From Laspinema olomoucense D3b (GTDB lineage: Bacteria > Cyanobacteriota > Cyanobacteriia > Cyanobacteriales > Laspinemataceae): 64,000 bases of DNA. This document shows, piece by piece, positions 24,592-62,378 of the stretch (position 1 is its first letter; each line of letters begins with the position of its first letter). A program made the position numbers and the translations under genes. Below the pieces are notes generated by a model. The model was not told the origin of the DNA, searched no databases, and saw only the letters and a program-made list of their open reading frames with translations. The stretch covers positions 32,112-96,111 of the forward strand of contig NZ_JAMXFA010000027.1 of assembly GCF_025370785.1 (NCBI RefSeq). The letters are read 5' to 3'.

Positions 24592-25115
24592 GGATTAGTC
24601 ATTGGTCCTTGGTCATTTGTCCAGGGACCCGTGACCAGTGACCAGGGACCCGTGAACAATGACCAAAAACTTTTTTTCCCAATTTGCGTAAAAGTTGTCC
24701 GCTACAACGATAAGTAAGTGTAACCCGCGATTTCAGGAGTTCTACTGATTGTCAAGCTACGGATTGGTGCGCGATCGGGCCTTGCCATCCCTGGGGAGCC
24801 AATATGGATCCCTCATCTGTCAACAAAATCCAGTAAAAATACTGATGCCGGGAAACATTAGAAAGGCTTTAATTGGTAATTAGCAAAACTTATTATTGAC
24901 GATAAAAAGCGATCGAAGTTCCCAGAGCCTCAAACTCATTTAGCCACCCCTAGCCAGGAGTACCCCTTGTGCCGATCCTGTAAATCATCGTTATAAAGTT
25001 ATGAAATCGCTGGAAAAAACTCCCCGGTAATTCAACAGCAATGATTTTGCTGGATATCCACAGCTATGCCATAGACTTGCTATTCACCTCAAAGGAAATA
25101 AGGATAAAGACTTTC
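24592..25115. other. Intergenic region with heptamer remnants
   Basis: Degenerate heptamers (TTGGTCC, GTGACCA, GGGACCC) occupy 24595-24664. The remainder is AT-rich, holds HIP1-like sites and the promoter region for the helicase gene, and has no recognisable gene. Confidence 0.5.
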
Positions 25116-27296
25116 ATGAAACCTCAAAAATTTATCACCACTGAGCCAATCAGTGAAAGTGGCAAAGATTGCGAACTCAAGGTATGGAATGCCGCCAAAA
25201 GTGCATTTTCGGACAGAGACTGTATAGGATATTGGCGGTATCCTCTGTTTGCTAAAGTCGGAGAAGTTCGTAAAGAGCCTGATGTACTCATTGCCGATCA
25301 AGAATTGGGTGTGATCCTGATTGAAATTGCTTGTGTCACGATTGACCAGATTGTTGCCGTCAATGGGGAACAGTGGCAATTCGAGACTAGCAATATAATG
25401 TTAGGAAGTCCTGGGGAGAGAGTAAATCGCCAACTGCAAGCGTTACTTGGGTATTGCGATCGCGAATCACAGATTTTTCGGAAAATTACGGGTCGAGGAA
25501 TTGTGGCTTTGCCTTTGGTTAAACAAGAAGAATGGCAACAGAAAGGCTTCGATCAGCTACCGGGATGTCCACCCGTGATTTTTCAAGGTCAACTCGGTAA
25601 AGTCGGTCTACTAGAGCGGATTCAACAATCCATGCCAATGGTCACCGGGGAAAATCTTGATGATGAGCAGTGGACGATTCTCAAAGCGGTGATCGGTGGA
25701 ACCCCGGTACTCCGCAAACCTCCTCGAACGATTTCTGCTGAAGGAAAAACTCGCGCGGGTCTGGTGGCTACTTTACAAGAAAAGCTGTATGAGTTAGATT
25801 TGCAGCAAGAAGAAATCGGCAAGCAAATTCCCCCCGGTTCCCAGCGGATTCGGGGAATTGCTGGATCTGGAAAAACTGTTTTGCTTTGTCAAAAAGCAGC
25901 GCATATGCACTTAAAGCATCCGGACTGGGATATTGCTTTAGTGTTTTTCACTCGCTCCCTATATGACCAGATTGAAAAATTAGTTGATCAATGGTTGCGC
26001 CGCTTTAGTAATGGTGATGTCAAATACGATAACAAGGTAAAGGATAAACTAAAAGTGCTTCACGGTTGGGGTGGTAAATCCCGTCCTGGTTTATACTACA
26101 CAATTTGTGAAGAAAATAATGTTGCCCCCCTAACCGTTGGAGATACTAAGCGAAAAAAAACCAATGAAGGCTTGGCAGATATCTGTAATCGACTATTAAA
26201 TGGGAAACAAATTCAACCGATATTTGATGCCATCCTGATTGACGAAGGACAAGATTTAGTCACAGAAGACGATCTAAAGTATTACGAAGAAAGTAGTGGT
26301 GAATCTAAGCAAGTCATCTACTGGATGGCTTATGAATCTTTGCGACCCGTCGATGTGGATAATCCAGAGCAACGCCGTTTAATCTGGGCTTACGATGAAG
26401 CCCAAAGTTTAGATAGTTTAAAAATTCCGATGGCTAAAGAACTGTTTGGAGATAGTTTAACTAACCTAGTCAGAGGACAGTATAACGGAAATATTAGAAA
26501 GAGTGTCATTATGCATCGTTGCTATCGGACTCCCGGCTCAATTCTGACCGCTGCACACGCCATTGGCATGGGTTTATTACGTCCGAATGGAATGCTGGCC
26601 GGACTGACCGATAAAAAAAGTTGGCAAGCGATTGGTTATGAAGTCAAACAAGGCAGTTTTAATCCCCCGGGTCAGCAAATTACTTTACACCGACCTCCAG
26701 AAAATTCTCCAAATCCTATTCCTAAACTATGGGACGATCCAGTATTAGAGTTTGAAATTTACGACTCTCGCGAAGAAGAGTTAGAAGCCCTGGCTGAAAG
26801 AATTAAGCATAATCTCAATTACGATCGCCTGTTACCAAGCCGAGACATATTGGTTGTGGTGTTGGGTGATACCTACGAAGCCATGAAACTGGAAACTGAA
26901 GTAGGCAGCTTTTTAATCGATGAAGGGATTAATGTCTACATTCCCAGTGGCATCCGACTCAATCAACTGAGTCCCAAGTATCCGAATACCGACCCCGATA
27001 GCTTTTGGAAAGATGGCGGGGTCACCGTGTCTCGAATCCACCGTGCGAAAGGAAATGAGGCGAACATGATCTATGTCGTTGGATTAGATAACGTGGCGAA
27101 AAATGAAGCCGATCCCAACTTACGAAATCAGTTGTTTGTTGGGTTGACCCGATCGCGAGGCTGGGCTTGCTTGAGTGGAACTGGCGATTATCCATTGTAC
27201 AACGAAATCCGAAAAGTAATCGCGAGTGGAGACACTTTTACCTTCACCTTTCAACGTCCCCCGAAAATTAATACAGGTGAAGAGGAAGAAACCTAA
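25116..27296 (+). CDS. NERD-type domain plus UvrD-like helicase
   Basis: 726 residues from ATG 25116 (MKPQKFITTEP; AAGGA upstream); an ATG at 25041 adds 25 residues that do not resemble the family. Numbered from 25041, the N-terminal NERD-like nuclease fold runs about 40-190, with Asp81 in EPDVLIADQELGVILIEIA. The usual E-x-K is E-I-A here (Glu95, Ala97), so the nuclease may be inactive. A superfamily 1 helicase follows: Walker A GIAGSGKTV (272-280), Walker B ILIDEGQDL (398-406), and late motifs VSRIHRAKGNEANMIYVVG and NQLFVGLTRSRGW. Such nuclease-helicase fusions occur in defence islands. A HEPN-motif gene follows 119 bp downstream on the same strand. Confidence 0.78.
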   Translation: MKPQKFITTEPISESGKDCELKVWNAAKSAFSDRDCIGYWRYPLFAKVGEVRKEPDVLIADQELGVILIEIACVTIDQIVAVNGEQWQFETSNIMLGSPGERVNRQLQALLGYCDRESQIFRKITGRGIVALPLVKQEEWQQKGFDQLPGCPPVIFQGQLGKVGLLERIQQSMPMVTGENLDDEQWTILKAVIGGTPVLRKPPRTISAEGKTRAGLVATLQEKLYELDLQQEEIGKQIPPGSQRIRGIAGSGKTVLLCQKAAHMHLKHPDWDIALVFFTRSLYDQIEKLVDQWLRRFSNGDVKYDNKVKDKLKVLHGWGGKSRPGLYYTICEENNVAPLTVGDTKRKKTNEGLADICNRLLNGKQIQPIFDAILIDEGQDLVTEDDLKYYEESSGESKQVIYWMAYESLRPVDVDNPEQRRLIWAYDEAQSLDSLKIPMAKELFGDSLTNLVRGQYNGNIRKSVIMHRCYRTPGSILTAAHAIGMGLLRPNGMLAGLTDKKSWQAIGYEVKQGSFNPPGQQITLHRPPENSPNPIPKLWDDPVLEFEIYDSREEELEALAERIKHNLNYDRLLPSRDILVVVLGDTYEAMKLETEVGSFLIDEGINVYIPSGIRLNQLSPKYPNTDPDSFWKDGGVTVSRIHRAKGNEANMIYVVGLDNVAKNEADPNLRNQLFVGLTRSRGWACLSGTGDYPLYNEIRKVIASGDTFTFTFQRPPKINTGEEEET

Positions 27297-27415
27297 TCTT
27301 TAGATTTAGACAACCTTCGGGGTTTGAAACTAATTCTTTCAATTAGGTATTTTTCAGCCGCCGACTCACAACCAATGAGTTTCTAAAATAAACTACTCAA
27401 GGATGACATTAGACC

Positions 27416-28165
27416 ATGAAAAATATTCGAGATTTATTCCAAGCCGATCTAGATCGTTCGCTGAAATTAGCTAAAAGCTTAGTTGCGCTAGAGATCTTCG
27501 GTGAAAATCAGTTGGAAAAACTAATAAAAAATGATCCAGAACATAAAATTTCAATGGGAGTAGGCACATCTTTACATCCTGATATAGAAAAAGTTTTGAC
27601 AAAAGATTTATTAACTGAGTTACAAAGTAACCCCGGTATAGTTCAAGAAATAGTTCACGGATATTTAATACAAGTTTGGTATGAATTTCTCGGGCAAATT
27701 TTTCAAGCAATATTGCACGAGCATTTCTGCGGACCAAACGATTACTCTAAACTTCCCAAAATAAATGTTCAATTAGATTTAGCTATATCTAATAGTTCTA
27801 ACATTGTTTCAAATATTGAAGAAAAAGCGGCGAACTGGTTTGAGCATGAAAAAAACCATGAAAAGATTAATAAAATTGAAAAATATTTAGAGATATCGAT
27901 TGATGAAAATTTAAAACAGCGCATTAAAAAATATATTATTGTTCGCAATGTTATTCAGCATAACCGAGGAGTATTACGCGATCAAGATTTAGAAACGTTA
28001 GGTCGTAAGGGAGGGAATATTACCTTAATCAATGATAGTCAACAACACCAAGCATATACAGCAGGAGAGAGAGTCATGATTAGCTACTGGGAAGTGGAAG
28101 CACTAAAAAACGATTTATATGAAGCCTCAAATCAGCTAATTCCCGGAGATAGCGAGTCTACATGA
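27416..28165 (+). CDS. Helical protein with HEPN-like R-x4-H motif
   Basis: 249 residues, AT-rich and Lys/Ile/Asn-rich unlike the flanking genes. Largely helical. Near the C-terminus IKKYIIVRNVIQHNRGVL contains Arg177-x4-His182, the R-x4-6-H signature of HEPN ribonucleases, located in the final helix pair as expected, preceded by an amphipathic helical region. No other domain is recognised. It follows the NERD-helicase gene and probably forms a two-gene unit with it: a helicase or sensor plus an RNA-cleaving effector is a common design of abortive-infection systems. HEPN assignment rests on one motif and predicted helicity, so it needs profile confirmation. Confidence 0.55.
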   Translation: MKNIRDLFQADLDRSLKLAKSLVALEIFGENQLEKLIKNDPEHKISMGVGTSLHPDIEKVLTKDLLTELQSNPGIVQEIVHGYLIQVWYEFLGQIFQAILHEHFCGPNDYSKLPKINVQLDLAISNSSNIVSNIEEKAANWFEHEKNHEKINKIEKYLEISIDENLKQRIKKYIIVRNVIQHNRGVLRDQDLETLGRKGGNITLINDSQQHQAYTAGERVMISYWEVEALKNDLYEASNQLIPGDSEST

Positions 28166-28648: not shown

Positions 28649-28982
28649 TCAAAGAGAAAGCAACTGGAAAAAGCTGCACTGAAATAGAACAATGCTGAAC
28701 ACCCGATTTGTCTTGTGCATTTCTAGGCTACTGTCGGGCGGTTAGTTCTGATCGCAGTTGCCATGAAAGAATTCCCTCCTATCATTCGAGTGCAATTGGA
28801 AAGCGATCGCCCGTTCCCCACCTCAGAGCGATCGCAACTATCCCAAAGTCATCATCACCCCAGTACCCAAAATGACCAAGAACCAACGACAAATGACAAA
28901 TGACAAATGACAAAAAACTTTATTGTCCGGGCGCGCCCTATTGTAAGATAGACCCGATTCAACTCATTGACCACCTGTGACT
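28649..28982. other. Intergenic region with ATGACAA heptamers
   Basis: Contains paired HIP1 sites and a short run of ATGACAA heptamers (28871-28914). Further on, GGGCGCGCCC (28929-28938) is a 10-bp palindrome. No gene seen; the promoter of the aldo/keto reductase gene must lie here. Confidence 0.45.
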
Positions 28983-29954
28983 ATGGCAACCAATCTCTCT
29001 CTTCCACTTATGGGCTGCGGTACTTGGGCTTGGGGTAACCGGCTTTTATGGGGATATGAACCCAGTATGGATGCGGAATTACAAGCGGTGTTTAATCTTT
29101 GTGTCGAAAATGGCGTGACGTTATTCGATACCGGGGATTCATACGGGACTGGCAAGCTGAATGGACGGAGTGAGACGCTGTTGGGGCAGTTTGCTCAGGA
29201 GTATCAGGGTCCGAATGCGGATAACATTTGTATAGCGACCAAGTTAGCGCCTTATCCTTGGCGGTTGACGCGGCAGTCGATGGTGTCTGCTGGGGAAGCG
29301 TCGGCGCAGCGGTTGGGACGGCTGGATTTGGTGCAGATGCATTGGTCTACGGCAAATTATGCACCGTGGCAGGAGTGGTCGTTGTTGGATGGATTGGCGG
29401 ATTTATACGATCGCGGGTTGGTGAAGGGAGTGGGTTTGTCCAATTACGGTCCCAAACGCCTGGAACGCATTTATCAAAAGTTTAGCGATCGCGGAGTTCC
29501 CATTGCTACCCTGCAAGTTCAATACTCTCTGTTGTCTACCTATCCCGTGACTACCTTGGGGCTCAAAGAAGTTTGCGATCGCCTGGGAATTCAACTGATT
29601 GCCTACAGTCCCCTCGCTTTGGGATTATTAACGGGAAAATACTCAGAAAACGGTCCCTTCCCTCCAGGGATTCGCGGATTCCTGTTTCGGAATATTTTAC
29701 CCAAAATTCAGCCTTTGTTAGACTGTTTGAGAGCAATTGCCTCGGACCGCAATAAAACCATGTCCCAGGTTGCCATCAATTGGTGCATCTGCAAAGGGAT
29801 GATTCCCATTCCCGGTGCAAAAAGTGTGGAACAGGCACAGCAAAATCTCGGTGCTCTGGGTTGGAGTTTGGATGCCGGGGAAGTGCTGCAACTGGATCAA
29901 GTGGCGGCGAATTCTAATAAAACAATGGTGCAAAATATCTTTCAAACGACTTAA
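28983..29954 (+). CDS. Aldo/keto reductase
   Basis: 323 residues from ATG 28983 (a GTG two codons earlier is less likely). NADPH-dependent oxidoreductase of the TIM-barrel AKR superfamily. The catalytic tetrad is visible: Asp and Tyr in TLFDTGDSYGTG, Lys in IATKLAPYPW, His in LVQMHWST. The cofactor-binding C-terminal part is present (PIPGAKSVEQAQQNLGAL). It resembles the cyanobacterial and plant-type reductases near the pyridoxal reductase group, but the substrate cannot be read from sequence. Not obviously connected to the neighbouring defence genes. Confidence 0.88.
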   Translation: MATNLSLPLMGCGTWAWGNRLLWGYEPSMDAELQAVFNLCVENGVTLFDTGDSYGTGKLNGRSETLLGQFAQEYQGPNADNICIATKLAPYPWRLTRQSMVSAGEASAQRLGRLDLVQMHWSTANYAPWQEWSLLDGLADLYDRGLVKGVGLSNYGPKRLERIYQKFSDRGVPIATLQVQYSLLSTYPVTTLGLKEVCDRLGIQLIAYSPLALGLLTGKYSENGPFPPGIRGFLFRNILPKIQPLLDCLRAIASDRNKTMSQVAINWCICKGMIPIPGAKSVEQAQQNLGALGWSLDAGEVLQLDQVAANSNKTMVQNIFQTT

Positions 29955-29975
29955 AATAAATCAACCGGGTAATCT

Positions 29976-30584
29976 CTATAGAAGTTTATCAATTTCCTCG
30001 AAAAGAGTCTGGCAATGCTTTGAAGCCTGACAAACTTTTTGAATGTCTATGAGGGCCAACAGTTTGCACCCATGTTCTATTTTTTTATATTCACCTTTCT
30101 GCGTGTGGCGGGTTGCAGCCTTTAAAGTGGGTTCCAAGTTATCCTTGGGAATTTTTTCGATGTTAGTAGATTTCGGCAAGGAATTAGCTTGGAATTTCTG
30201 TCCATAAAATTTGCTTAATGCCTCAATATCGGCAATAAACCATGCTTCCATTGCTTGAACCATCAGATGGCACTGGCGATCGCTCACTCCCAGGGAATCC
30301 CAGTTATCGGTTGACTTCAAATGTTGCCAAGGGGTTTGAGTTACGGGACCCTCGGAGTCAACTAATAAGATGTTACAGGCATCAGGATAGTCTATCAAAG
30401 CATTTGTAAAGTCGCGATAGGTATCATTGCGAGAGCCACAGACGGTAATATTCCAGCGAATTTTGCGATCGCGTGCTTTTTTGATAAAACCTTGGAAGAA
30501 CTGGCTAAATCCACTTCGGAGCAATGCTTTGGTATTTTTAGTATTTCCCCCGCCTTCAATATAAAGTCTAATTTCTGTTACCAT
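29976..30584 (-). CDS. DUF4276-like TOPRIM-type protein, partner of ABC-type ATPase
   Basis: 202 residues. It begins with a short strand and invariant Glu (RLYIEGGGNTKNTKA, Glu10), and has a second acidic site ILLVDSEGPV (Asp76, Glu78), followed by HLMVQAMEAWFIAD. A Glu after the first strand and a D-x-E/D after a later strand is the metal-binding layout of TOPRIM nucleases; the set of motifs matches DUF4276. It overlaps the 3' end of the upstream ATPase gene by 7 bp, so the two are translationally coupled. ATPase plus TOPRIM is the architecture of OLD, PARIS and retron effectors. Role in defence is inference. Confidence 0.75.
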   Translation of the reverse strand: MVTEIRLYIEGGGNTKNTKALLRSGFSQFFQGFIKKARDRKIRWNITVCGSRNDTYRDFTNALIDYPDACNILLVDSEGPVTQTPWQHLKSTDNWDSLGVSDRQCHLMVQAMEAWFIADIEALSKFYGQKFQANSLPKSTNIEKIPKDNLEPTLKAATRHTQKGEYKKIEHGCKLLALIDIQKVCQASKHCQTLFEEIDKLL

Positions 30585-31765
30585 CGATTGCCTCCAAGTT
30601 CACCCATTCGCCATAAATCTCCCAGGGTGTAATTGTCCAGCCATTTTTTCAGGCGGTCTGGATCCAACCGCCGTAATTCGCTGCCGCGATCGCTGCGATC
30701 GCAAACTAGAACAGACTCAGGAGGAAGTGCCGAAATTAAAGCATCGGAATGAGTGGTAACAATCAGTTGAGTTCGCGCCGACGCTTCCACCAACATCTCC
30801 GCAATCATCGGTAAAATATCTGGATGTAAGCCAATTTCTGGTTCTTCAATACAGATAACGGGTCCCGGTGTAGGGTCAAGGAGTAACGCCATTAAGAATA
30901 AAAAACGAAGAGTGCCATCGGAAAGACGAGTCGCCGGAATTGGCTCAATTAATCCTTCTTCTCGGATAAAAACTTGCACCGTCCCGCCATAAATTTTGAT
31001 ACTCAACTCCTCAGCTTCTTCATAAAAATTTTTCAAAGTTTCGATTAGGGTGCGACTTCCGAGCTTGTGTTGTAAATTATTCAAAACTAATCCCAGATTA
31101 CTCCCATCGGGAAGCAAGGGAGATTCCGGTAAATCAGTTTTTTGCGGCAACCTAATCGGTGAATCTCGTCCCAGTTGCCAATCCCGATACAAGCCAATTT
31201 TAGTAAATTGATTGCTCAGATAAGTTAACTGGGGATATTGCTCGGGGTCTTTTCTTTGAGATAAAACCGATTGGTCTGCACTCAGGGTTTCTCGCCGCAA
31301 AGACCGTTTTTTTTGTCCCTCAATTTCCGTGGGAATCGTGATAACTGGATGACCCCCTTGGTAGCGATAGAAAAAATCAGGTTCTTCTTCCCCGGGTTCA
31401 GGCTGTTCATTTTCAATGGTTTCATCAACCAATTCCAGTCTTTGACCGGATACGGTAAAACTAAGCTGATAGTGTAAAGGCATTAAGCCTTCTGTCGGTT
31501 CCAATGTGGCATCAATTAGGGCATTCGGAGATTCTTTACCCCCTTTCCAAAGAAAATCGCTAATGCCTCCCCCTTTACGAATTGGAGCCATTAAATCCGT
31601 GGGAGTTGCCTTTAAGATTTCTAGGGCTTCTATTAAATTGGATTTGCCGGATGCGTTTCGACCAATCAATACATTTAAAGGCTGTAAGTCTATAGAATCT
31701 GCCTCATTTCCATAAGATAGAAAATTTTGCAGTTTTAGGCGATGAATAAACCTTTTTCCTTCCAC
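30578..31765 (-). CDS. ABC-type (AAA15/21, OLD/RecF-like) ATPase
   Basis: 395 residues. Walker A GRNASGKS (35-42) follows the typical N-terminal FIHRLKLQNFLSYGNE; the ABC-like signature is RLSDGTLRFLFLMALL; Walker B is PVICIEEPEIGLHPD; the switch histidine is in LIVTTHSDALISALPP. The C-terminal GDLWRMGELGGNRW is typical of this subgroup, which commonly pairs with DUF4276 genes. It lies upstream of the DUF4276-like gene and overlaps it. Likely the sensor/ATPase part of a two-protein defence unit. No nuclease domain is fused, unlike OLD. Confidence 0.82.
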   Translation of the reverse strand: MEGKRFIHRLKLQNFLSYGNEADSIDLQPLNVLIGRNASGKSNLIEALEILKATPTDLMAPIRKGGGISDFLWKGGKESPNALIDATLEPTEGLMPLHYQLSFTVSGQRLELVDETIENEQPEPGEEEPDFFYRYQGGHPVITIPTEIEGQKKRSLRRETLSADQSVLSQRKDPEQYPQLTYLSNQFTKIGLYRDWQLGRDSPIRLPQKTDLPESPLLPDGSNLGLVLNNLQHKLGSRTLIETLKNFYEEAEELSIKIYGGTVQVFIREEGLIEPIPATRLSDGTLRFLFLMALLLDPTPGPVICIEEPEIGLHPDILPMIAEMLVEASARTQLIVTTHSDALISALPPESVLVCDRSDRGSELRRLDPDRLKKWLDNYTLGDLWRMGELGGNRW

Positions 31766-31804
31766 TTGCTCCTCCGGATTAATGAGAGATAATTTTCAAT
31801 TATA

Positions 31805-31920
31805 CGCAATCCGGTTCTGATATGTCTATAAAAACCCGCACCCTCAAGGGTGGGGCGATACGGACGAAGCCCGCCTGCGCGGGCTCATAGAGAAAACGAA
31901 CTTCTTAAACCGGATTGGGT
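31805..31920. mobile_element. MITE-like element with REP core (copy A)
   Basis: AATCCGGTT (31808-31816) and AACCGGATT (31908-31916) form terminal inverted repeats around the double-hairpin REP core at 31834-31885. The same layout, with longer and perfect ends, occurs at 61840-61980. No transposase; a non-autonomous element is the best explanation. It separates the two ATPase/TOPRIM pairs. The remaining gap to 32019 is AT-rich and empty. Confidence 0.7.
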
Positions 31921-32019
31921 AGGATTGGGGGTTTATTAATGTTAACTTAAAAAATGGTTTGCCGAGTGAGCAGAAAATTATTAATGTTTGCTGAAGGAAA
32001 TTTTTATTGATTAATCCGA

Positions 32020-32877
32020 CTAAGCTAAAACCTTAAACGGTGGATTTGCAGCTTCCCATTGTAGAATAGCTTGGTAGAGTTCTGTCCTAGAAAAAAACCA
32101 AGCCTCATAAGCCAGTCGTAAATCTTTTTCTAGGATAAGGCTTTCGACTTGCCTGGTGTTACAGGACCCCAAGGCTTTACAGAGTCCAATGGACAGAATG
32201 CAGATGAGATCATGACCGCAACAGACAGACCAGGGGTTGTGAGTCTTTTGTTTTAAATCTTCTATCCGCTTGTGGAGGGTTTGTTCATCTAAATCATATT
32301 TTTGTGAGTTGTTTTTAACGGTTTTGATGAGTTTTAATTCATCTAAGGCTAAAGTGGTATCATCAATAAATTTTTTAAAGGATAAATCTTCAAATTTTAA
32401 GGAAAGGCCCTCTTTGAGGGACAGCCATCGCAAGTAGCCTAAAAAAACTCCGGGTAAAATCAGGAGAGTCCGAATATCTTGACCTGTAGATTCGGTCAGC
32501 TTTTTGATTTTCTCTTCCGATCCATATTCAGCTAGAACTTTTTCCAATGCCGGGGACTGGAGGAGCATGGTTTCCAGGTCGTGGGTGTCGGTCATGAGTA
32601 GATTTGGGGTAGGGGATTGCTTCCCCTCTAGGCGATCAAAATCCGCATCGACAACTGCTAACACTCCTGAAACGTTATCTTGTTCTAGGATATCCAGTGC
32701 GCCGATCGCCTTTTCCTTATTAGTCGCATTTTCTACGAAACATTGTCTGAGATTGACCAAATTTTTCCAGACTCGTGCATCGGTTTCGCCTTCGGTGATT
32801 AAAAATGTTCCCTGATATTGAGTCCGCATTAAGCGAATTTTATTCGCGACGCGATCCGGTGTTAAGTATTCTCTCAT
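32020..32877 (-). CDS. DUF4435-like TOPRIM protein (AriB-like)
   Basis: 285 residues. TOPRIM-type acidic residues are Glu29 in FLITEGETDARVW and D77-A-D79 in LAVVDADFDRLEG; the block TDTHDLETMLL that follows is characteristic of DUF4435. The C-terminal half is helical. Its start overlaps the stop of the upstream ATPase gene by 4 bp. An AAA ATPase followed by a DUF4435 protein is the gene order of PARIS (AriA then AriB), in which AriB is the TOPRIM nuclease toxin released when a phage counter-defence protein is sensed. Length is close to AriB. Assigned as PARIS-like from motif and context, not by profile. Confidence 0.75.
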   Translation of the reverse strand: MREYLTPDRVANKIRLMRTQYQGTFLITEGETDARVWKNLVNLRQCFVENATNKEKAIGALDILEQDNVSGVLAVVDADFDRLEGKQSPTPNLLMTDTHDLETMLLQSPALEKVLAEYGSEEKIKKLTESTGQDIRTLLILPGVFLGYLRWLSLKEGLSLKFEDLSFKKFIDDTTLALDELKLIKTVKNNSQKYDLDEQTLHKRIEDLKQKTHNPWSVCCGHDLICILSIGLCKALGSCNTRQVESLILEKDLRLAYEAWFFSRTELYQAILQWEAANPPFKVLA

Positions 32878-34193
32878 GGCCCTTTTAACTCCACGGTCAA
32901 ATCCCAGCGATCGCTGATAATATCGGGAGAATGGGTGGCGATTAACACATCAATATTCACTAACTTGGCGATTTGTTGTAAATCTTTGAGAAAATGAGCT
33001 TGCCAAGCGACGTGCAACGACAGTTCAGGCTCATCAATTAGAATCAAGGAATTGGGTTTTGCTTTGAATAATAACTCATACAGCATCACCAATTGATGTT
33101 GTTCCCCAGAGGATAGGTTCTCCGGGGATAACTGCTTGCCATCATCAGTCTGAAATATAAAACCTTTTTCTTTGTTGACGCTGATACTTTTATAACAAAA
33201 TCTGCTATTAATAATTCGCTTTAAAATTTCTATTTTTTGAGCCAGTTCTTCAAAGACCCTCAGCTTATTTTCTACATCTTCTACATAAACGGATAAAATA
33301 CTTTTGGCGGTGTCATCAATTGAGCGGTCCACTTGAAAATCTGGGTCTTCATCTTGATTTAAAAGTCCCGCTTCTATCAGCCGATAGCGCTTTTCTTCGA
33401 TTTCCCTTAACTTGGCATGAATTTTTTCGCCGGTTAAGTCAGGGTGTGCGGTAGTTTTGACCACTCTTGCTGGAAAAGTCCGATCCAAGGATTGAGCTAA
33501 TTCTCCATATTCAGCAAGTTTACTCTGAATATGTTCGGCGAGTTCTTCAGAATAGGCCGCAACGGAGGTGATTCTCGGATCTTCCCCCCCGCTCAAAACA
33601 TTACTGAAATTGAATAACCGTTGAGCTTCTATTAATTGTAATGCTATCGATTTTTTGACATTTATGAACCAATTTGGCTCGGTGTTTATTTGCCTTAATT
33701 GTTTTGGTAAAACTTCACCAAACCTACGGATAACATCTGCAACTGGAAGTATTTCATGGGTTGAAAAATTAAACGATATTTCATAATTTATGGGACTTGT
33801 CTCTGGAATGCGACTCTCAATAACTTGACTCATTTGTTCAAACGAATTAGAATCAGAAGCTACATCAATGAGTTGAAATTCCTCCTTTTTGGATAATCCA
33901 GAATCGAACAATTGAAGGGTTATCGGGTGCTTCTTGGCTTTGGAGGTTTTCTCGATGGATTGGGTCACCACTAACTGCTCCCCATTATCAAACTCAACCC
34001 GAAATTCGCTGAACGGAATCGTCACTAATTCCAAGTACCGGGAATTAAATAGGCCATTGAGCATTCTTAGTAGGATAGTTTTACCAAACCCATTCGGACC
34101 ATGAATGATGGTAATTCGCTCATCTAAATTTAAGGGGATGGTGTGATTAAAAATTCCAAAAAGATTGGTCACCGAAATTTTATGGATTCTCAT
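32874..34193 (-). CDS. ABC-type AAA ATPase (AriA-like)
   Basis: 439 residues. Walker A HGPNGFGKT (31-39) after MRIHKISVTNLFGIF; a long helical insertion in the middle (about 180-330, coiled-coil-like with ELAEHIQSKLAEYGELA); signature LSSGEQHQL (360-368); Walker B LILIDEPELSLH (383-394); switch His in LIATHSPDII. Gene order, 4-bp overlap with the DUF4435-like gene, and size agree with AriA of PARIS. Related ATPases also partner other effectors, so the exact system type is not certain. It is the upstream gene of the second ATPase/TOPRIM pair; no promoter motif was identified. Confidence 0.78.
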   Translation of the reverse strand: MRIHKISVTNLFGIFNHTIPLNLDERITIIHGPNGFGKTILLRMLNGLFNSRYLELVTIPFSEFRVEFDNGEQLVVTQSIEKTSKAKKHPITLQLFDSGLSKKEEFQLIDVASDSNSFEQMSQVIESRIPETSPINYEISFNFSTHEILPVADVIRRFGEVLPKQLRQINTEPNWFINVKKSIALQLIEAQRLFNFSNVLSGGEDPRITSVAAYSEELAEHIQSKLAEYGELAQSLDRTFPARVVKTTAHPDLTGEKIHAKLREIEEKRYRLIEAGLLNQDEDPDFQVDRSIDDTAKSILSVYVEDVENKLRVFEELAQKIEILKRIINSRFCYKSISVNKEKGFIFQTDDGKQLSPENLSSGEQHQLVMLYELLFKAKPNSLILIDEPELSLHVAWQAHFLKDLQQIAKLVNIDVLIATHSPDIISDRWDLTVELKGP

Positions 34194-34308
34194 CTTGACC
34201 TCGGGTGTAGCCAGGGTTATATTGTTACTTGCGCTCTATTTTACAGGACTATTCCCTAGGTTTAGAGAATAATTTTTTATCACGAGGATGCAATTTTGTC
34301 AAGTTATT

Positions 34309-35613
34309 TCACAGCAATTTCAGTTGCACTGAGGGATTATCCGCCTCCCTCTGTTCCCCATCTTCACCTGTTGAGGAAAACTGCCACATCTGTTCATCTC
34401 CCGCCAATAAACCCTCGGCTGCTTCTAGTAAATCGGTTTTGATATCCTCTAATCCTTCTCGATTCTCTAAATAGGTTTGTAAGGCACTTAATGGGTCAAT
34501 TCCAGCGCCTGCATTCAGTTCGGGAACTCGGGGTCTGGCGAGTTGGCTGACGAGTTCGGGTTGAATGGTGTAGTTATGTGCGATGCTTAAGGCTGCATGA
34601 ATGACGGTGTTATCAATTAAATCAATTTGGTGCGATCGCAATTGATAAATCAACCTCACTACTGCATCCTCAATCTCCTGTTTGCCGATCGCCTTTAAAA
34701 TCTGCTCTTGAGGATTCTCCGCTTCCGATACATCCACCTTAATCGTCTTAAACGCTCTCACAACCAACGGGCAAAATTCCCACTTCGCCTGTCCCCGTTC
34801 TAACTCCACCATCACATAGCCTTTATCTTCCTTCTGCTCACTGAAATCCACCCGTTCAATACTCCCCGGATAAATCACCGGCGGATTATTCGTGGGATTC
34901 AGGTTCTGATGGCGGTGAACATGACCCAATGCCACATAATCAAACTCGGGGCGAATTAACAGAGAAATCGGAATCGTAAACCCCTTGCCAACAGCCAGAA
35001 ACCTTTCGGCGCCTAATTCAGCGCGATCGGCCATTAAATGCGCCAGCAGGACTGTGGGTACTGTTTCGTCTAGTTGGCGGACTTCCCCTTCTAGGACGAC
35101 GCGCAAACGGTCAATTAATAACTGATTCACATCCGAGAGGGAAATCCCCTCAGTTTGCGATCGCGTCATTAAGGTAGAACGGGTAATCCAAGGCAAGGTA
35201 ATAATCTGCACCGGACCCTTGGCAGTTTCTATGCGATGAGTCGTGACGCTATCACCAACGATAAAACCGGGGACTCCCAAAGTGCGATAAATCGATAAAC
35301 TTGCTCCCCCTTGTCCCTGGGAATGTTGATCATGGTTACCGACGAGCAAAACTGTGGGGATATTTGCCTGGACTAACCGATGAAATTGACGCGCAAACGC
35401 TTCTTGAACAAACGGAGGTGGAGTGGCATCAGGAAAGGCATCTCCGCCAAACAAAACTAAATCCACGGGTTCTGCAATAGCGCGATCGATGCAGCGACTC
35501 AAGGTGCTGACAAAATCTTCTAATCGCGTATTCAAGCCCGTGGCTGGATTAACTCGCCCGTGGGAAAACCCACTGCCGATATGGATATCTGAAAGATGCA
35601 GAATTTTAATCAT
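34309..35613 (-). CDS. sbcD: SbcD-type DNA exonuclease
   Basis: 434 residues, calcineurin-like phosphoesterase of the Mre11/SbcD family that with SbcC trims hairpins and double-strand ends. Metal-binding motifs in order: LSDIHIG (start), FGGDAF, VGNHDQH, LLAHLMAD and ALGHVHRHQ. The C-terminal capping region is longer than in Escherichia coli and ends in an acidic tail. sbcC is not adjacent in the window. It follows the defence pairs on the same strand but is upstream of them with a 115-bp gap, so co-transcription is possible. The symbol reflects family membership. Confidence 0.85.
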   Translation of the reverse strand: MIKILHLSDIHIGSGFSHGRVNPATGLNTRLEDFVSTLSRCIDRAIAEPVDLVLFGGDAFPDATPPPFVQEAFARQFHRLVQANIPTVLLVGNHDQHSQGQGGASLSIYRTLGVPGFIVGDSVTTHRIETAKGPVQIITLPWITRSTLMTRSQTEGISLSDVNQLLIDRLRVVLEGEVRQLDETVPTVLLAHLMADRAELGAERFLAVGKGFTIPISLLIRPEFDYVALGHVHRHQNLNPTNNPPVIYPGSIERVDFSEQKEDKGYVMVELERGQAKWEFCPLVVRAFKTIKVDVSEAENPQEQILKAIGKQEIEDAVVRLIYQLRSHQIDLIDNTVIHAALSIAHNYTIQPELVSQLARPRVPELNAGAGIDPLSALQTYLENREGLEDIKTDLLEAAEGLLAGDEQMWQFSSTGEDGEQREADNPSVQLKLL

Positions 35614-35624
35614 GGGGTGTTGTT

Positions 35625-35845
35625 AGTCCTTTGTCCTTTGTCCTTTGTGTTTTGTCCTTTGTCCTTTGTTTCTGTTTGGTTTGGACAAACTGGCGCGATC
35701 GCCTTATTTTAAACCCAGTGACAAAAGACCGAGGACTCTTCACTTCCTTTGTCTATTGTGCGTTGTTTCTTGAACGTTGCACAGACTGGCGCAGTCGCCT
35801 TGCTTCAAACCCGAGGACAAAAGGACCTAGGACTATTCACTTCCC
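35625..35845. repeat. CCTTTGT heptamers and an imperfect 67-bp duplication
   Basis: TCCTTTG-type heptamers fill 35625-35670. Two imperfect copies of one block then follow, 35684-35747 and 35779-35845, sharing ACTGGCGC, TCGCCTT, CAAACCC, GACAAAAG, AGGACT and TTCACTTCC. They occupy the whole gap between sbcD and cysH, whose transcripts both read leftwards. Confidence 0.7.
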
Positions 35846-61514: not shown

Positions 61515-62378
61515 GGCTGGTCAACACTCAGAAGCCCTTGGCTTACAGTAAAGCAGCCTCTATTGTAAACGATCGCGAACCCATTGGAAAAATCTGCCTG
61601 ATGTTAGCAAACCCTTTACCCGATCGCAGGGATTTCTCAAAACTAAACGTGACTTATCAGATTTTTGGGGGATACGCTGTTCCTATTTTCCTCTCGGTCT
61701 GTGCTGCCATTTTAGTATATTCGACCTCTTGCAAAATTCTTTCAAGCCGATAGGCGTTATTAATGGGGGGGAAAGGGGGAGCAATTCCCTTTTTTTTGCC
61801 AGAGGTCTATATATTTCGCGGCCTATTAATGAATTATATCAAATCCGGTTGTGATAGATCTATAAAAACCCACACCCTCAAGGGTGGGTCTATACGGACG
61901 TAGACGCGCTAGCGGCTTCGGTGAAGGGTAGCCCGCCTACGCGGGCTGGAGAGAAAAACGACTTTTAACAACCGGATTTGGTATTAGAAGGGTATGAAAA
62001 GTGGGATAATACCGTTAGAGAATATTAGACTGGCAAAATGTCCCCCATGAGGCGATCGCCGAGGAAGTATTTCTCACCGGATGAACCCGACAACTCGCCA
62101 AATAACTGGGACAGACCCCACCACCATCCGGCGGGATGAACCCTTAAAATTTGGCCTTTTGGACACCAGGGAACCCGACGCCTATTTGCAAGGGCAAATT
62201 CAAAAACAGGGATGTTAGAACCATTTGGGAAGAACCACGAGGAAATGGGATCACCGAGGTCCCTGTAGCATCCAGATAAAATAGCCGATTTACAAACAAA
62301 TTGCCCCAGACTGCCGGGGAGTTGATAAGAGATCAACCCTTCGGCCTAAAATCAAAACAATCTAACAGCTAAAATATC
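61515..62378. other. Intergenic region around MITE copy B
   Basis: Divergent promoters of the tocopherol and potassium-transport genes, plus the MITE at 61840-61980. Right of it, 62039-62140 has a 33-codon frame (MSPMRRSPRKYF start) without a clear ribosome site; not called. No RNA gene seen. Confidence 0.4.
61840..61980. mobile_element. MITE-like element with perfect 13-bp terminal inverted repeats (copy B)
   Basis: CAAATCCGGTTGT (61840-61852) and ACAACCGGATTTG (61968-61980) are perfect inverted ends. Inside lies the REP core: ACCCACACCCTCAAGGGTGG hairpin, a spacer longer than in other copies (GACGCGCTAGCGGCTTCGG), then AGCCCGC-CTAC-GCGGGCT. Length 141 bp, no coding capacity. The ends suggest mobilisation by a transposase elsewhere in the genome. 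No certain target-site duplication. Confidence 0.82.

What the first reader, a model, noticed from the sequence alone, without database searches (positions are those of the whole stretch)
29976..34193. Two adjacent ATPase/TOPRIM-like pairs, separated by a MITE
An ABC-type ATPase overlapping a DUF4276-like gene, and a second ABC-type ATPase overlapping a DUF4435-like gene, lie in the same direction back to back. Both partners show a Glu and D-x-D/E TOPRIM pattern. Two differently built OLD/PARIS-like modules together suggest layered or cross-guarding immunity, one possibly monitoring the same trigger with a different effector.
Basis: partly seen in the sequence, partly recalled or inferred. Interest (0 to 1): 0.75.

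Follow-up and report, generated by a model that had tools for sequence, protein, structure and literature searches.

The report
Two defence cassettes sharing one site
A cyanobacterium carries two separate two-gene systems, each likely an anti-phage defence in which an ATPase is predicted to control a nucleic-acid-cutting partner, side by side at a chromosomal spot where close relatives carry one, the other or neither, so the pairing is probably shared parking rather than teamwork.

Summary

The layered or cross-guarding reading is not supported. Among 8 genomes of the genus, the site between a reductase gene and sbcD is empty in one, holds AriAB alone in three, HEC-01 alone in one, broken AriAB in one, and both only in the window; the eighth (G130) has decayed HEC-01 and an empty site on two contigs. 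Of 17 surveyed genomes with relatives of both, only the window has them adjacent.

By-product: in Nostocaceae, HEC-01 and another ATPase/partner candidate (PDC-M07) share a landing site beside mutS and stack in tandem about as often as independence predicts (8 seen, 6.0 expected). Both cassettes are ordinary members of known kinds; the shared-dock pattern is the interesting part.

The parts
32874..34193 (-). AriA-like ABC ATPase (439 aa), first gene of the PARIS-type pair
   Evidence: AAA_21 68.0 bits, AAA_15 67.2 bits; AriA 4.1e-28, PtuA 2.5e-26; solved AriA 8ux9_B E 6.6e-17 in two stretches; Walker A GPNGFGKT
32020..32877 (-). AriB-like DUF4435 TOPRIM-type nuclease (285 aa)
31803..31921 (.). 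MITE with inverted repeats AATCCGGTT/AACCGGATT and TA at both ends, between the two cassettes
   Evidence: 53 matching stretches in the own genome; the relatives' loci show no match at this place, only partial matches further out on the cysH side or contig end in four of them
30578..31765 (-). HEC-01A ABC ATPase (395 aa)
   Evidence: HEC-01A 3.5e-181 over 5-395; AAA_21 128.8 bits; Walker A GRNASGKS
29976..30584 (-). HEC-01B, DUF4276, predicted TOPRIM-type nuclease (202 aa)
29961..31803 (.). HEC-01 cassette as delimited by comparison with the HEC-only and empty sites
   Evidence: G212 aligns 29655-31803 and then from 34276; G079 aligns to 29960 and then from 34276
31942..34275 (.). AriAB cassette as delimited by comparison with the AriAB-only and empty sites
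   Evidence: G170 and G202 align to 29961 and 29959 and then from 31942
28977..29954 (+). aldo/keto reductase-like gene, left border of the variable site
   Evidence: found at the site in the genus genomes, partial in G212 (contig end) and partial with a stop on contig C342 of G130; named by eye, not profile-tested
34309..35613 (-). sbcD, right border of the variable site, co-directional with the cassettes
   Evidence: TIGR00619 sbcD 3.1e-71; 8 of 8 genus genomes

Best explanation
The finding is two separate two-gene cassettes, a PARIS-type AriA/AriB pair and a HEC-01 pair, that share one variable chromosomal site between an aldo/keto reductase-like gene and sbcD, and each likely acts on its own as an anti-phage system in which an ABC ATPase is predicted to hold back a predicted TOPRIM-type nuclease until infection is sensed. 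Shown here: the gene pairs, their families, the intact Walker A motifs and conserved TOPRIM-type acidic residues, the fold matches of predicted models, and the separate presence, absence and decay of the two cassettes at the same site in the genus. Inferred from PARIS biochemistry (PMC12409363, sections read): the AriA-like ATPase would sequester AriB-like subunits and release them on meeting a phage protein, and the freed dimer would cut host tRNA and arrest growth. Inferred by analogy only: HEC-01A gates HEC-01B in the same way, on an unknown nucleic acid. The MITE most likely landed between the cassettes by chance and probably leaves them as two transcription units.
For: Families. Folds. 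Residues. Pairing inside each cassette: HEC-01A directly upstream in 79 of 80 HEC-01B loci, the other ending 149 bases upstream at its contig end; AriA-like upstream in the 30 AriB loci fetched, the best 30 hits, one of them cut short. Separate inheritance at one site: G079 empty; G170, G143 and G202 AriAB only; G212 HEC-01 only; G113 AriA split by a transposase-like ORF with 25 residues of AriB left; G130 a decayed HEC-01 on one contig and an empty site on another; G000 both. No adjacency elsewhere. Independent stacking at a second shared site.
Against: Genome-level co-occurrence exceeds chance in both surveys, without correction for kinship or genome size. The surveys used single proteins, so they see relatives of the window's genes, not every DUF4435 or DUF4276 pair, and many genomes are drafts in which an adjacency at a contig break would be missed. 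No phage, RNA or protein was tested. AriB homology rests on the DUF4435 profile and fold; neither a single-sequence nor a profile search of the PDB sequences found AriB. The HEC-01B fold match is moderate, and Foldseek alone gave nothing at E 0.001. G130 and G212 are fragmented assemblies, so their states are less sure.
Confidence: 0.78

Rival explanations
1. The two cassettes form one layered or cross-guarding immune locus: one senses the phage's inhibitor of the other.
For: Same strand, back to back, both ATPase plus TOPRIM-type; genome-level co-occurrence above chance.
Against: Each occurs without the other at the same site in close relatives; no second adjacency in 17 genomes with both or in 80 named HEC-01 loci; a MITE separates them; at the analogous mutS site two such pairs stack only as independence predicts.
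Confidence: 0.06
2. The cassettes sit next to sbcD, and in Nostocaceae next to mutS, because they work with DNA repair: shared transcription or sensing of repair intermediates.
For: 26 of 35 HEC-01B-bearing Nostocaceae genomes hold it within 7 kb upstream of mutS on its strand, 19 of them within about 300 bases (read by eye, remnants counted); a separate HEC-01 clade (L189, L190) has mutS on the other side.
Against: 19 Nostocales mutS-linked copies fall in one clade of 21 rows (99/97), so one arrival plus inheritance explains most of them; neighbours elsewhere are miscellaneous (a hand-reduced set); the sbcD site is empty or differently filled in relatives.
Confidence: 0.1
3. One or both pairs are not anti-phage but a housekeeping ATPase-nuclease, as reported for the archaeal OLD-family protein Cran1 (PMC12796447, passages).
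For: Long residence of HEC-01 at mutS within Nostocales.
Against: Patchy presence (AriB-like in 54 of 243 and HEC-01B in 36 of 243 genomes), remnants and insertion-sequence-like damage.
Confidence: 0.12

Closest known systems
PARIS (AriA/AriB), also called class 4 OLD
   Same: Adjacent ABC ATPase and DUF4435 TOPRIM-type genes; AriB-like fold; conserved acidic residues; meets the published detection thresholds.
   Different: Very distant in sequence from solved AriB; trigger and tRNA target unknown; sits at a cyanobacterial chromosomal site rather than a P4-like satellite.
HEC-01 (PADLOC; HEC stands for Hma-embedded candidate)
   Same: Both proteins hit the HEC-01A and HEC-01B models over nearly full length; adjacent and overlapping genes.
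   Different: No Hma system was seen next to it, though none was searched for by name; I found no paper showing its function.
OLD-family nucleases (OLD proteins, GajA of Gabija, retron Eco8 effector)
   Same: ABC ATPase with a TOPRIM-type partner; the HEC-01B model aligns best to OLD C-terminal domains.
   Different: ATPase and nuclease are separate genes here; no reverse transcriptase or Gabija helicase directly beside them.
PDC-M07 (PADLOC candidate)
   Same: ABC ATPase plus small partner gene; shares the mutS landing site with HEC-01 in Nostocaceae.
   Different: The partner (M07B) is a different small protein, PIN-like by eye only with no Pfam hit; not in the window.

Membership tests
PARIS | Adjacent genes with AAA_15 of at least 32 or AAA_21 of at least 27 bits and DUF4435 of at least 27 bits (rule in PMC9122126, passage seen) | tested here: met
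   67.2 and 68.0 bits, and 55.6 bits; genes overlap by 4 bases
PARIS | AriB TOPRIM fold | tested here: met
PARIS | Conserved TOPRIM catalytic acids (E26 in the studied AriB) | tested here: inconclusive
   E29, D77 and D79 invariant in 30 of 30 aligned relatives, but not aligned residue by residue with the studied AriB
PARIS | AriA hexamer sequesters AriB; phage trigger releases it; AriB cuts tRNA | not testable with these tools
   needs biochemistry and phage assays
HEC-01 | HEC-01A and HEC-01B proteins encoded together | tested here: met
   E 3.5e-181 and 4.4e-82; pairing seen in 79 of 80 relatives
HEC-01 | Anti-phage activity | not testable with these tools
   no assay; the passages seen of PMC12988326 say several HECs, naming HEC-06, were active and do not name HEC-01
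OLD-type TOPRIM (for HEC-01B) | TOPRIM fold with Glu and D-x-D/E | tested here: met
Cross-guarding two-system locus | The two pairs kept together across lineages | tested here: not met
   1 of 17 genomes with relatives of both has them adjacent, the window itself; separate in genus relatives

The most novel reading that the evidence does not exclude
Small ABC-ATPase/nuclease cassettes of different build (AriA/AriB, HEC-01, PDC-M07) are interchangeable tenants of fixed chromosomal docks flush with DNA-repair genes, sbcD in Laspinema-like cyanobacteria and mutS in Nostocaceae, on the repair gene's strand, and the repair gene's expression or activity is part of how they are armed.
Probability: 0.12. 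Interest if true: 0.65.

Novelty: new member of a known kind. Interest (0 to 1): 0.33.

Why it matters
It shows how easily adjacency of two defence-like modules is over-read. With a few close relatives and occupancy counts at a shared site, tandem stacking is explained by independent gain and loss. It also places the uncharacterised DUF4276 family (HEC-01B) near OLD-type TOPRIM nucleases by predicted fold, and points to a mutS-adjacent dock in Nostocaceae where ATPase/nuclease candidates can be found and tested.

Tried and rejected
Cross-guarding or layered immunity: rejected on the genus site, the surveys and the 80 named loci.

A general link of HEC-01 to DNA-repair genes: I scanned 80 of the 145 nearest-neighbour ORFs listed. 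Left out were the mutS genes, the sbcD of L112, most other neighbours of mutS-linked loci and some more by hand (an HsdR-like and an AAA protein among them), so this set cannot count mutS or sbcD. In it the commonest families were AAA_21/AAA_15 ATPases (4 of 80), ZnuA (3) and radical SAM (3); the 25 families shown, of 151, include no mismatch-repair or recombination family apart from SMC_N/DUF2813 hits that look like the same ATPases. The repair link is kept only as a rival and as the low-probability novel case.

Sequence searches of the PDB with the AriB-like and HEC-01B proteins found no TOPRIM relative; the three hits are designed TIM barrels and were set aside as chance. Foldseek of HEC-01B against PDB and viral models gave no hit at E 0.001.

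Literature: no paper in the held library has the term DUF4276 or PDC-M07. HEC-01 as a whole word gave 5 papers, four plainly unrelated by title, the fifth (PMC12724379) seen only in the listing. A search around PARIS and cyanobacteria showed nothing to the point among 15 listed of 598; one for mutS, Nostoc and defence islands gave 3 papers, none holding mutS. PMC10568477 was seen as an outline only and PMC12839542 in passages only.

Counts of linkage to mutS and of genomes holding both families were read by eye from printed lists. Fragments and remnants are in the totals unless stated; leaving out five remnants gives 5 observed against 5.1 expected tandem pairs.

Full report
Observation. The four genes are present exactly as described, all on the minus strand and so in the order AriA-like, AriB-like, HEC-01A, HEC-01B. 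Pfam and PADLOC name three of them without ambiguity; for the AriA-like ATPase the best PADLOC model is AriA (4.1e-28) with a PtuA model close behind (2.5e-26). Within each pair the genes overlap, by 4 and 7 bases. Between the pairs lies a MITE at about 31803-31921, with terminal inverted repeats and TA at both ends. Its sequence folds better than shuffles (z -4.0), and 53 matching stretches, itself included, were found in the 7.0 Mb draft genome with 40 of 227 candidates scored.

Are they one system? Eight genomes of the genus, the window's included, were compared at this site. G079 is empty: under 120 bases lie between the reductase and sbcD. G170, G143 and G202 hold AriAB only; G143 also has transposase-like ORFs between sbcD and AriA (by eye). 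G212 holds HEC-01 only, on a 5.3 kb contig that ends inside the reductase gene. G113 holds an AriA split by a transposase-like 344-aa ORF and 25 residues of AriB. G130 has a HEC-01 with a deletion in HEC-01B and a truncated HEC-01A on one contig, and sbcD next to a partial, stop-bearing reductase with nothing between on another; it is a draft of about 510 contigs. Only the window has both. Breakpoints are sharp: the empty site joins 29960 to 34276, HEC-01 spans about 29961-31803 and AriAB about 31942-34275.

Surveys. In 243 genomes of the order, relatives of the AriB-like protein occur in 54 and of HEC-01B in 36, both in 15. In 386 genomes of the phylum the numbers are 26, 25 and 9. Of the 17 distinct genomes with both, the window alone has them side by side; the others have them on different contigs or at least about 350 kb apart. 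Some hits are fragments, many genomes are drafts, and single-protein searches do not see every DUF4435 or DUF4276 pair. Among 80 named HEC-01B loci (the best 80 of 219), 79 have HEC-01A directly upstream and none has an AriB-like gene in the DNA held (as a control the profile found 30 ORFs in the 60 loci). Against this, genome-level co-occurrence is above chance (15 vs 8.0 expected, P 0.004; 9 vs 1.7, P 7e-6); kinship and genome size were not corrected for, so I do not lean on it either way.

A second shared site. Among the 80 loci, 23 hold mutS in the DNA around HEC-01, most of them directly downstream of HEC-01B. In 145 Nostocaceae genomes (family of G154), HEC-01B has a match in 35 and mutS was located in 142. 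By eye, 26 of the 35 lie within 7 kb upstream of mutS on its strand, 19 within about 300 bases; nine are elsewhere. Upstream genes in 36 fetched mutS loci (20 without and 16 with linked HEC-01, picked by me) show another ABC-ATPase/partner pair at the same spot, PADLOC's PDC-M07. Its B gene has a match in 52 of 145 genomes and is mutS-linked in 33, remnants counted. Both candidates stand in tandem at mutS in 8 genomes against 6.0 expected from independent occupancy (Fisher P 0.31); without five remnants, 5 against 5.1. So tandem stacking of such pairs does recur, with a different partner, at about the rate a shared dock predicts. In the HEC-01A tree (74 rows) 19 mutS-linked Nostocales copies fall in one clade of 21 (99/97) and the mutS-linked Microcoleus/Tychonema pair forms another (100/100), with L188 as a third, isolated case; the window's copy is in neither clade. 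So mutS was reached at least twice.

Mechanism. PARIS biochemistry (PMC12409363: abstract, introduction and two results sections read; passages) has AriA sequestering AriB, a phage protein releasing it, and the AriB dimer cutting tRNA as a two-metal nuclease. I transfer this to the AriAB pair as likely, and to HEC-01 as an analogy. The most probable history is that AriAB sat at the site early: it is there in both groups that the reductase gene separates, and its DNA identity (85-96%) follows the same split, somewhat below the flanking genes (90-98%). HEC-01 is seen only in G000, G212 and G130 at this site and probably came later. The sbcD tree itself is weakly supported, so this order is inference.

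Verdict. A real but ordinary pair of known-kind cassettes at a variable site.

Noticed in passing
L118, L119, L121 and 20 other loci; Nostocaceae G handles: HEC-01 and PDC-M07 cassettes sit directly upstream of mutS on its strand in many Nostocaceae; two Microcoleaceae loci (L189, L190) and L188 have mutS on the other side of HEC-01A.
   Followed up: partly
window 25041-28165 (+): A large helicase (PADLOC 'Helicase' 1e-90, Pfam UvrD_C_2) followed by a small protein with a weak HEPN-type match (RTasHEPN 7e-4), left of the reductase gene: possibly another defence pair.
   Followed up: no
window 28870-28914 and 35626-35669: Short 7-base tandem repeats (AAATGAC and GTCCTTT) lie on either side of the variable site in roughly opposite orientation; similar stretches also match in G008.
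   Followed up: no
L113, L114, L115: A second, 68-70% identical HEC-01 copy at a different site in the same genus, with a ZnuA-like gene upstream (Pfam in L113; L114 is 87-90% alike) and, in L114 and L115, a two-AAA-domain protein downstream.
   Followed up: partly
window 61842-61978: Another pair of the MITE's terminal repeats AATCCGGTT in inverted orientation, probably a second MITE copy in the window.
   Followed up: no
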